Shown here: positions 43,948-61,700 of the stretch, piece after piece
Layout of the letters: the number at the start of each line of letters is the position of its first letter
Numbering within the stretch: the stretch's first letter is position 1
NCBI GenBank assembly: GCA_033032865.1
Contig: JAWHQI010000201.1
Span: forward strand, 3,535,501 to 3,599,500
DNA: 64,000 nt
Source: Dactylorhiza incarnata
Taxonomy: Eukaryota; Streptophyta; Magnoliopsida; Asparagales; Orchidaceae
Reading direction: 5' to 3'
The notes under the pieces: generated by a model
The model's input: the letters and a program-made list of their open reading frames with translations, nothing else
Databases searched by the model: none
What the model was told of the DNA's origin: nothing
Position numbers and translations under genes: made by a program

Positions 43948-45722
43948 TGTTGGAACAACCCTATTACTGATTTGGGCTAGGATCACTATCTGTTGACTAG
44001 GATCAAGTTGAACCCAATGTATAGTATATGGGTCAAGAGTTTAGGCTGTTAGAACTCAAGAAAGTATTCTGGTTCTACGTTCGATGAACTCCATATTGCG
44101 TTCGACGAACGGCTTGCTCTCTGCGTTTGACGAATGGCTTACACTCTGCGCTTGACGAACGACTTACACTCTGCGTTTGACTAACGACTTGCTTCTATCT
44201 CAACGGTTGTTGAACTTCATCTCAGCGGTTGTTGAACCTCATCTCAGCGGTCGACGATCAGTCTCAGCGGCTCAGCGGTTGATGAAATCATCCCATCTCA
44301 GCGGTCGACAAAATTATCCAGTCTCAGCGGTCGACGATTTTGCTCAGTTCAGTGGTCGACAAATTTGCCCGTTCGACGAACTCAGCTCTGCGTTCGAAGA
44401 ATAAGTATCAGATGTTCAGATCGACGAAAGATCTTCTCAGCTCAACTATTTAACTCTTCTAGCCAGATTCAGTTAAGGTCGACGAACTCAATCTTGAGAT
44501 CGACGAAAATCTTGAGATCGACGAAAATCTTGAGATCAACAAAAATTCTTGAGATCGACAAAATTTGTTATTTCAGTTCAGAATTTCAGACAGATCATTT
44601 TATTACATTCTCTGAACTCAGATCGTCTACACCAACGGATCTATTCTTCCAGATAAGTAAGGATAATATATTTTCTTTACTATATTCCTTTCCATCTCTT
44701 CTCGAGAGAAAATAGCCGTTGACATTTAATGGAAAAGGAACATTTCATTGAAAAGGAAAATGATATACGGCGTGTAAGATTTACATTTCCCAGAATATTT
44801 ATTACAGATTATTCTATTCCTTTCTCAGATGATTTGAATTTCAAATAAAAGACATATAGTAAAAAGAAAAAGGAAGCAGATACAGAACTTTTACACGACA
44901 ACAATATTACAGAACATATCAAAAATAGCTGTACAGGAAAAAGAAAGAGGAAGAGGAATATGCAGTCAAGAAAATTATACAGGAAGAGAAGAAACATAAG
45001 AAAGCATTCACAGATCTTCATCTTCCTCAATAGCAGCACTCATTCTCTGAGAACAACATCAACACCATCTCTCAGATCTCTGCTGCAAGTTCACATCTTC
45101 AAAGAGCAACAATAATTTGAAGAATTTATTCTCTCAGATTCATCAGCTACAGGAAGATCAATACTTTCAAGAGAAAGCTCCAGCCATCTACTGTCAACAA
45201 TTTTATATCAGACAGAGGAGCTTTACAACATAAATCCACTAGAGTCTTCTCTCAGAATATTGACAGAGAAGAACATCTAACCCTTCTTATCCCCACTTGT
45301 ACAGGGTTATAACTCCCTTCAAAACTTAACCCCTTGGTGATAGGGCACCTGAACAAAAACATGTAGTTGGATTAGAGCACCAGATCAAAAGCTCCCTTGG
45401 TGTGTGGACACCTGAACAAAAACCCATTGGTGATAGGGCACCTGATCAAAAACCTAGTGGATCCTACCAAGTGTGGTAGAAGAGTAGACATACCCAGGTT
45501 TATTGGGGAACAACTATAAAAATCCTTGTGTCCTCTGTGTTTTGATTTTCTGTGTTGTTGTGCTGTGTGCTCTCTTTGTGTTTGCTTTTATTACTCACTC
45601 AATACATATATATATATATCACTATTTTAATTTCACTATAAAATTAAGTGAAAAGTTTTTAATACTCTATTCACCCCCCCCCCCCCCCTCTAGAGTAAAG
45701 CTAAAATCTAACCTCACCTTCA
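43948..45722 (+). repeat. 5' LTR of element E
   Basis: TGTTGGAACAACC...CACCTTCA, 1775 bp. U3 has the TCGACGAA array (44078-44555). The transcribed part has several GGTGATAGGGCACCTGA-like repeats (45331-45455). A TATTCACC...CTCTAGAG stretch lies near the end. No clear TATA box was found; a weak candidate is AATATATT near 44668. Confidence 0.9.
44078..44555. repeat. TCGACGAA array in LTR E U3
   Basis: About 20 variants of GTTCGACGAAC, GGTCGACGA and GATCGACGAAAATCTT, in sub-blocks with different linkers. The partner array in the 3' LTR is at 61826-62270 and has lost one or more units. Confidence 0.9.
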
Positions 45723-45724
45723 AT

Positions 45725-45797
45725 TGGTATCAAAGGGTGGTTGATTATATCAATCACTTTCAACTGATATCAATTGCACTTTCAATTGGTATCAGAG
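45725..45797 (+). other. Primer-binding site of element E with repeats
   Basis: TGGTATCAAAG lies two bases inside the LTR. Two further related words follow: a weak one, CTGATATCAATTG, near 45763, and TGGTATCAGAG at 45787-45797. The last one matches the iMet-type site best. Which is used cannot be told from sequence. Confidence 0.7.
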
Positions 45798-60600: not shown

Positions 60601-60766
60601 AATTAGGCACCACTTTATCAGAGATAATGTGGATAAAAATAAAATTTGCCTACAGTTCATTTCTACTTATTTTCAAAGAGCTGATATTTTCACCAAGCCA
60701 TTGGATGAAATGAAACACATTTTCTTTATAAATCAACTAGGAATGATAGATGGAGATTCAATCTGA
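57662..60766 (+). pseudogene. pol: Pol of element E, continued
   Basis: One frame with TAA at 57739, TAA at 58793 and TAA at 59882. Protease end has VKGLKHNLIS. The integrase zinc region has ELWHKGLRHIN, but the cysteine pair is damaged (Tyr in place of Cys before QLGKQTG). The core has LDLFGP, RSDHGTEF and NGVTERKNRT. RT has QMDVKSAFLNG, YGLKQAPKAGY and YVDDIIFGS near 59816. RNase H has STAEAEYIAASS, and the end is ADIFTKPLD. The frame is otherwise preserved over 3.1 kb without indels, so decay is by point mutation. Confidence 0.92.
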
Positions 60767-61700
60767 TAAAAAATAAGTTTTCTACTTATCCCATCTGTTC
60801 ATCGAACTGAGATTGACGAAATCAAGTTTTCGTCGAACGGAGATCGACGAAGTCATCAAGTTTGTCGAACCGAGATCGACGAAAATCAATTTTTCGTCAA
60901 ACCCAGTTTTGATGAAGCTTTTATTTCTGCTCTGTCATTATAATCAAATCTTTTTTCATTTTAACTGAATGCCTACAGAAACTGTTTCTCTTTCCAGTTC
61001 CTTTGCACTTGATCTCTATTTTATTTTGCAGGAACAATAGCAATATAAAGATTGCATCCTTCCCTACCTCCATCAAATGTCCCTTCTTCAATGGGCCTAG
61101 CTTCAGTCCTTCCTGAAACTAGGCAGGGGGAGAATTTCTATGAAGAAGCTCCATATGATGCAGTGTTTTGCTAAGGGTGAGATGTTCTATGAACTAGGCA
61201 GGGGGAGAAAGCAGAAGAAACTCCTTTATGATAGGGGGAGTTGTCTTATCAAGAGGAAATGTTGTATGAAGAAGCATGTTTTCAGTTCCTGAAAAAGCTC
61301 ACAGCAGTTTGCAGATTTAGGGAGACATGTTGCAGATTCAGTTATGACAATGTCAGAATTCAGAGATGTGATAGATTCAAATTCAGATTGGTAACACAGC
61401 ATATTCAGATTATAAAGCTGTTCAGATCTACAAATTCAGAAAGCTGAAATATAGCAGATACAAGCTCAGCTAATCAGAATTCAGAATATAGATGTCAGAA
61501 TTCAAAGAAAGACAAAGACAAAGACAAAGGTTCTTTTTATTAGTTTTATTTTCAATGTAAATTTTCAAAACTCAGAGTATCATATTTTATATCTGATGAA
61601 ATATTTAAAATCTATCAGATATATATGCTCTGTTGTTTTGTTATTTGTTTTGTTATTCAATTTTTTGTCAAATAGTGTCCTAACCCAAATAGGGGGAGAT
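60767..61700 (+). other. Element E 3' region
   Basis: Begins with TCGACGAA words (60797-60905), then AT-rich sequence with GGGGGAG tracts at 61126, 61201, 61234 and 61692. The last abuts the LTR. No coding frame was recognised. Confidence 0.8.
60797..60905. repeat. TCGACGAA array after pol E
   Basis: About seven words such as TTCGTCGAACGGAGATCGACGAAG and TTTGTCGAACCGAGATCG, starting about 30 bp after the pol stop. Confidence 0.88.

What the first reader, a model, noticed from the sequence alone, without database searches (positions are those of the whole stretch)
43948..61700. The same family word at three matching places in two copia elements
In E, the TCGACGAA word occurs in U3 (44078-44555), at the 3' end of gag (47611-47770) and just after the pol stop (60797-60905). 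In F, a different word (GCGCTAGC/GCGGTAGC) occurs in U3 (48208-48529), at the 3' end of gag (50881-50920) and soon after the pol stop (54385-54418). The words differ but the three positions match. This suggests either spread of the family word within an element or a recognition system needing sites near both gene junctions. In E the gag copies even set protein sequence (RR pairs).
Basis: seen in the sequence. Interest (0 to 1): 0.87.

Follow-up and report, generated by a model that had tools for sequence, protein, structure and literature searches.

The report
Repeated words mark retrotransposon gene junctions
Two jumping genes in what looks like a plant genome each carry their own short mirror-image DNA word in the promoter, at the end of gag and just after pol; the same places recur in relatives with other words, so the words look like selected control sites rather than an accident.

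Summary
Observation confirmed. At up to one mismatch E's word occurs in E's own DNA only in U3, at the gag 3' end and after pol; F's word peaks at the matching places. The window lies in an unnamed 3.27-Gb genome, so I tested other copies. In 12 sampled E copies the post-pol cluster is in 12 and the gag-end cluster in 8. A blind test with each element's own U3 words put the two best internal peaks at gag-end and post-pol in 5 of 8 Sirevirus-type elements, one of the two in 2, neither in 1. A third word (GCGTCGA, L027/L028) obeys the rule.

U3 and linker boxes are the known Sirevirus RM boxes (PMC2829016). The gag-end site, the sharing of one word with Ty3 and other copia U3s, and the spacing grammar were not in the papers I could search. 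CGTCGA-N7-TCGACG has 121,091 sites genome-wide, 44 for the reversed control. Half-sites are far better conserved than the rest of gag. Most gag-end clusters, and post-pol clusters of E relatives, lie about 105-270 nt before acceptor-like sequences.

Best reading: sites for a dimeric nuclear protein at promoter and gene junctions. RNA hairpins are a serious rival.

The parts
43950..45722 (+). E 5' LTR; word array in its U3 at 44081-44562 (17 sites at up to 1 mismatch)
   Evidence: self-BLAST LTR pair 90.8%; word scan
47612..47770 (+). E gag-end cluster inside the gag ORF 45888-47957: inverted half-sites TTCGTCGA/TCGACGAA
47957..47978 (+). splice-acceptor-like sequence ending at 47978, at the gag|pol junction; best of 198 AGs in E's left internal piece
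   Evidence: simple matrix from recalled consensus; prediction only
60798..60900 (+). E post-pol cluster, starting about 30 nt after the end of the pol ORF
61010..61031 (+). splice-acceptor-like sequence ending at 61031, at the place where L016 starts its env-like ORF; best of 307 AGs in E's right piece
   Evidence: L016 ORF; prediction only
61703..63443 (+). E 3' LTR; word array at 61834-62268 (16 sites)
48047..49234 (+). F 5' LTR (F lies inside E); word array at 48218-48527 (14 sites)
   Evidence: LTR pair 94.4%
50880..50917 (+). F gag-end cluster (3 sites at up to 1 mismatch) inside gag
51159..51180 (+). splice-acceptor-like sequence ending at 51180, at F gag|pol; best of 367 AGs in F's interior
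   Evidence: prediction only
54389..54416 (+). F post-pol cluster (6 sites)
56458..57662 (+). F 3' LTR; word array at 56619-56955 (21 sites)
36452..38711 (+). 3' LTR of Ty3/gypsy element D with E's word in U3 (36510-36931, 32 sites)
   Evidence: LTR pair 10709-12934 / 36452-38711; PBS and PPT seen
40459..40686 (+). word cluster of the third type (CGTCGA) in the U3 of a further copia-type LTR (G, about 40380-41700, ends set by eye)

Best explanation
The words are family-specific, CpG-rich dyad boxes of the kind known as Sirevirus RM boxes. Elements of two Sirevirus-type lineages keep them at three places: (1) an array in U3; (2) late in gag, roughly 200-270 nt before the start of pol; (3) just after pol, in E relatives roughly 105-200 nt before the start, or relic, of an env-like gene. 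Shown: recurrence at these places with three words; conservation of the half-sites; a preferred 7-nt spacer between inverted half-sites in the CGTCGA class. Inferred: each box is a site for a dimeric nuclear DNA-binding protein, probably of the host because one word serves Ty1 and Ty3 elements; in U3 it acts as promoter or enhancer, and at the two gene junctions it helps make or regulate separate pol and env RNAs, by internal initiation or through the nearby acceptors. When a family's word changes, the other places tend to follow with a lag.
For: Recurrence: 12 of 12 post-pol and 8 of 12 gag-end in E copies; 5 of 8 elements with both blind peaks, 2 with one; third word in L027/L028. Half-site fixed, spacer length fixed, spacer sequence free: 60 of 86 exact convergent pairs at 7 nt with 34 spacer sequences counted without merging strands; genome 121,091 against 44, and 121,091 of the 183,921 pairs at 1-25 nt. 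Half-site identity E to L016 39 of 40 against 392 of 654 for the rest of the gag piece. The same word in U3 and interior, and in U3s of Ty3 D and distant copia L015, points to one reader of DNA. Word change at two places in L014 (GCGTTA in U3 and post-pol).
Against: With one mismatch allowed, spacings 14 (80) and 18 (42) are also common beside 7 (114). U3 arrays of E relatives hardly use the 7-nt pair (5 pairs in 14 U3 clusters). Internal clusters fold well as RNA, U3 pieces do not. L012 fails the blind test, L013 has no post-pol cluster, L014 no gag-end peak with its own U3 words. F has no high-ranking acceptor after its post-pol cluster. No protein, transcript or binding data. The 121,091 sites include many copies of the same families.
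Confidence: 0.45

Rival explanations
1. RNA hairpins. The internal units are 8-bp stems with 7-nt loops near the gag|pol and pol|env junctions; they control splicing or gag-pol recoding, or mark genomic RNA for packaging. The U3 array is a separate promoter feature using the same word.
For: Fold z-scores: E post-pol -6.0, L016 gag-end -4.8, F post-pol -3.4, E gag-end -2.2, against 0.03 and -0.80 for two E U3 pieces and -1.1 and -1.4 for two coding pieces. Inverted pairs at internal sites. Acceptor-like sequences downstream.
Against: L016 post-pol (-1.9) and F gag-end (-1.05) are not outstanding. Stem sequence is kept and loop sequence free, the reverse of what many RNA-binding proteins need (general knowledge). 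No wobble bias in decayed half-sites: 13 C>T against 21 G>A, though neutral decay would look the same. G-type U3s have the pairs too.
Confidence: 0.3
2. Neutral spread. A U3 minisatellite seeds copies into the interior by template switching or gene conversion; gag-end and post-pol are merely tolerant places.
For: Same word at all places within a family; arrays vary in copy number.
Against: Same places in lineages with different words; other arrangement than in U3; half-site identity 39 of 40 against 60% around it; CpGs in clusters are lost fast after insertion.
Confidence: 0.12
3. Host-side role: palindromic CpG clusters serve as small-RNA or methylation targets, or as unmethylated islands.
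For: CpG observed/expected about 1.0-2.1 in the U3 clusters, 1.3 at E gag-end. A small-RNA hotspot at maize Sirevirus LTR palindromes is recalled from the literature and comes from no call.
Against: In 11 LTR pairs CpG sites changed in 105 of 512 cases inside clusters and 86 of 324 outside: no strong protection from decay. Does not explain the fixed spacer or the junction positions.
Confidence: 0.08

Closest known systems
Sirevirus RM boxes, Bousios et al. 2010 (PMC2829016; abstract, section 9, first part of the Discussion and passages seen)
   Same: Palindromic, CpG-rich, many copies, own word per element, in the upper part of the LTR and in the linker after pol
   Different: The paper names two areas, LTR and linker before ENV, and calls the boxes Sirevirus-specific with a CGG-CCG core. 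Here: a third cluster inside gag; linker boxes in E and F although no ORF of 200 aa or more lies there; E's word has no CGG-CCG core; like words in Ty3 and distant copia U3s
ARF inverted-repeat sites IR7 (PMC10690724, passages seen)
   Same: Two inverted hexamers with 7 nt between, GTC in each half-site
   Different: Half-site begins with C, not T: C in both half-sites in 60 of 73 NGTCGA 7-nt pairs; no excess of the TGTCGA over the CATCGA decay form (64 and 64). Geometry only, not membership
Inverted repeat at the Sirevirus gag/pol boundary (as cited in PMC2829016, passage)
   Same: Inverted repeats near gag|pol, proposed there to help pol expression
   Different: I could not compare the sequences; whether it is the same thing is open
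Spliced gag or env RNAs of other plant LTR elements (BARE, PMC3735527, start of abstract in listing; BAGY2 and Athila env acceptors, as cited)
   Same: Subgenomic RNAs from one element
   Different: No word clusters at the junctions are mentioned in what I saw

Membership tests
Sirevirus (E and F) | Ty1/copia gag and pol domains | tested here: met
   Retrotran_gag_2, rve, RVT_2 in E; zf-CCHC, rve, RVT_2 in F
Sirevirus (E and F) | Several polypurine tracts before the 3' LTR; poly-C run at the LTR end | tested here: met
   Seen by eye; no score computed
Sirevirus (E and F) | Large gag with downstream coiled coil; place in an RT tree | not tested
   No coiled-coil prediction or tree was run
RM boxes | Palindromic, high copy number, in the upper part of the LTR | tested here: met
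RM boxes | CGG-CCG core | tested here: inconclusive
   F's word contains it (GCCGGC with flanking CGG/CCG); E's word TTCGACGAA does not; the paper itself lists one exception
RM boxes | Linker copies only in ENV-bearing elements | tested here: not met
   E and F have linker clusters but no ORF of 200 aa or more after pol; L016 has both
RM boxes | Absent from non-Sirevirus elements | tested here: not met
   U3 clusters of palindromic CpG words in Ty3 D and in I and in distant copia L015
ARF IR7 site | Inverted half-sites with 7-nt spacer | tested here: met
ARF IR7 site | Half-site starts TGTC | tested here: not met
ARF IR7 site | Bound by an ARF | not testable with these tools
   needs binding data

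The most novel reading that the evidence does not exclude
One dimeric host DNA-binding protein reads CGTCGA-N7-TCGACG in this genome. Unrelated Ty1 and Ty3 elements have converged on, or exchanged, a word of this class in U3; Sireviruses in addition use it at both gene junctions to make separate pol and env RNAs, and change the word at all three places together when they change partner.
Probability: 0.25. Interest if true: 0.88.

Novelty: new variant of a known kind. Interest (0 to 1): 0.62.

Why it matters
How Sireviruses express pol and env is unsettled; the 2010 paper argued for an internal env promoter from boxes in U3 and before env. A third box cluster inside gag, with acceptor-like sequences near both junctions, makes the question directly testable. 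One word class shared by Ty1 and Ty3 elements suggests a shared host factor that a single DNA probe could fish out.

Tried and rejected
Chance: rejected (reversed controls). Protection of clusters from CpG decay: no strong sign. Preference for the ARF-like TGTCGA form: none. RNA wobble bias: none. Known RNA family at 43900-63500: none reaches an Rfam gathering score. TATA boxes after clusters: the script set cluster ends badly, so its distances are not used; by eye F has CTATAAAAG soon after its U3 array and one E subtype has TATATAAT after the post-pol cluster. Viral contigs: a pattern scan gave two records (L009, L010) that I did not study, a protein scan no relative. A genome count of F's word was asked for often and never answered.

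What was not looked at: of 20 stretches, the blind test used L011, L012, L013, L014, L015, L016 and L027/L028; L017, L020/L021 and L025/L026 hold further Sirevirus-type pieces that I did not put through it (word clusters of L017 and L020/L021 fit the rule where the stretch covers it), and L018, L019, L022, L023, L024, L029, L030 were only scanned. Dropped rows: L035 was left out of the gag-end sets (its cluster has no exact word and is shifted); L002, L007, L009, L010 were left out. The stretches were picked around word hits or E-like RT hits, so they are not a random sample. My note says U3 was seen in 7 of the 12 E copies; the recount gives 6.

Full report
CHECK. TCGACGAA occurs 46 times in the window against 1.33 expected, GCGSTAGC 22 times against 1.36. 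At up to one mismatch E's word occurs in E's own DNA in four clusters only: both U3s, gag 3' end and post-pol. F's word has clusters at the matching places, with five further one-mismatch hits at three places. F lies inside E. Pfam finds copia-type gag, integrase and RT domains. Both show several GGGGGAG tracts before the 3' LTR and a poly-C run at the LTR end (by eye), features that PMC2829016 lists for Sireviruses.

OTHER COPIES. A pair pattern of E's word has 46,369 matches there against 53 for its reversed control. I fetched 20 stretches of 10 kb around listed hits and 12 of 118 scored hits of an E RT search, spread down the list. In the 12 copies the post-pol cluster is in 12, the gag-end cluster in 8, and the 3' LTR U3 cluster, within the fetched stretch, in 6. 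Of the four without a gag-end cluster, three show no gag match in the stretch. Apart from three single hits and one pair, no other cluster appears.

OTHER WORDS. L027/L028, with E-type pol at about 53-66% identity, carries GCGTCGA-type words at gag-end and post-pol and in U3. L011, L012 and L014, F-type by integrase and RT (about 72-88%), carry F-type words at gag-end and post-pol. Their U3s hold an E-word cluster as well, with F-type words still plain in L011 and a changed GCGTTA form in L012 and L014; L014 has GCGTTA at post-pol too. Blind test: repeated CpG 7-mers from each element's own U3 were counted along its interior. The two best peaks are gag-end and post-pol in E, F, L011, L016 and L027/L028; one of the two in L013 (gag-end) and L014 (post-pol); neither in L012. 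Distant copia L015 has a best peak of 5 and a 2.4-kb piece beside the 3' LTR of Ty3 element D a best peak of 4. As a control, F's U3 words give 1 hit and those of L027/L028 give 2 on E's interior, where E's own give 65; E's U3 words reach a peak of 5 on F's interior, where F's own reach 15. U3s that carry the E word do peak on E-type interiors, as they must (E repeated with its pieces apart). L020/L021 also shows the three places with E's word, outside the blind test.

GRAMMAR. In E relatives the internal copies are TTCGTCGA and TCGACGAA facing each other: 33 pairs in 12 gag-ends (32 with 7 nt between, 1 with 6), 36 in 15 post-pol clusters (31 with 7; 5 with 6, all in L016), 5 in 14 U3 clusters, two of these five in Ty3 D. 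The G type has such pairs in U3 as well, so U3 does not exclude them. In the window and 38 loci 60 of 86 exact convergent CGTCGA pairs at -5 to 30 nt are 7 nt apart, with 34 spacer sequences, strands not merged. With one mismatch in all, 114 are at 7 nt, but 80 at 14 and 42 at 18. Genome-wide CGTCGA-N7-TCGACG has 121,091 sites against 44; spacings 1-25 together give 183,921 against 5,818. Many sites are copies of one another.

SELECTION. E's exact gag-end half-sites agree with L016 at 39 of 40 positions, the rest of the aligned gag piece at 392 of 654; with L013 at 35 of 40 against 514 of 667; with L021 at 39 of 40 against 530 of 620. In 11 LTR pairs CpG sites changed in 105 of 512 cases inside clusters and 86 of 324 outside, other positions in 144 of 3595 and 297 of 9470. 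Cluster CpGs are thus lost quickly after insertion; that they persist in families is best explained by selection in active lineages (inference). Of 15 gag units found by pattern in six E- and G-type copies, 14 are in one frame (SSNGARR and the like); the exception is L016's third. F-type palindromes stand in mixed frames.

JUNCTIONS. A simple acceptor matrix ranks the AG at gag|pol first in E's left piece (47978), F (51180), L012, L014 and L013, third in L011, and not in the top seven in L016. At pol|env it ranks first in E's right piece (61031) and in L016, where it precedes an env-like ORF with the same GCAG|GAACAAT, and second in L013, which has no post-pol cluster; none of F, L011, L012 and L014 has one in its top seven right after its post-pol cluster. 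Of 12 E copies the pol|env site is in the top three in 11 and the gag|pol site in 7, one of these reading GAAG. L027/L028 has a weak gag|pol site (rank 5) and none at pol|env in its top six. Cluster-to-acceptor distances, from these coordinates, are about 105-270 nt. These are predictions, not transcripts.

RNA OR DNA. As RNA, E post-pol (z -6.0), L016 gag-end (-4.8), F post-pol (-3.4) and E gag-end (-2.2) fold better than shuffles; L016 post-pol (-1.9) and F gag-end (-1.05) less so; two E U3 pieces do not (0.03, -0.80); two coding pieces give -1.1 and -1.4. Against RNA: the half-site is fixed and the spacer free, U3 uses the same word, and decayed half-sites show no wobble bias (13 C>T, 21 G>A; weak, since silent copies decay neutrally). 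I put a DNA-binding dimer first, at less than even odds.

KNOWN. PMC2829016 (abstract, section 9, first part of the Discussion and passages seen) describes RM boxes in 13 Sirevirus elements in two areas, the LTR and the linker before ENV. I saw no gag boxes there, nor in passages of PMC3414828. The listings show no title or abstract start that reports them. The library lacks most subscription papers; a 2016 maize paper on Sirevirus LTR palindromes is recalled only. The ARF comparison rests on passages of PMC10690724: the geometry agrees, the first base does not.

Noticed in passing
10709-38711: A Ty3/gypsy element (D) of 28 kb with nested insertions; its LTRs (91.6% alike) carry E's word in U3, and a second, unbroken copy of its target sequence lies at 41745-42447.
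   Followed up: partly
14247-20359: Element I, minus strand, LTR pair 95.8% alike, with a palindromic U3 word GGTCACGCCCGTGACC; its three top U3 words give one hit inside.
   Followed up: partly
39001-39600: A further cluster of CpG words (CGCACG, minus strand CACGCACGACCGT) in what looks like another LTR.
   Followed up: no
1-4921: Long GC-rich tandem arrays, one (1-271) with GCTAGCGAGAGCCC words that resemble F's word at one mismatch.
   Followed up: no
L013:1015-1345: U3 of L013 mixes many CAGCGCTCGACA units with a few TCGACGAA words, as if one word were replacing another.
   Followed up: no
G000:C4:42401-138173: CGTCGAGA(T/C)GATCTCGACG pairs recur at 41-base steps in several groups along this contig; a family of its own.
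   Followed up: no
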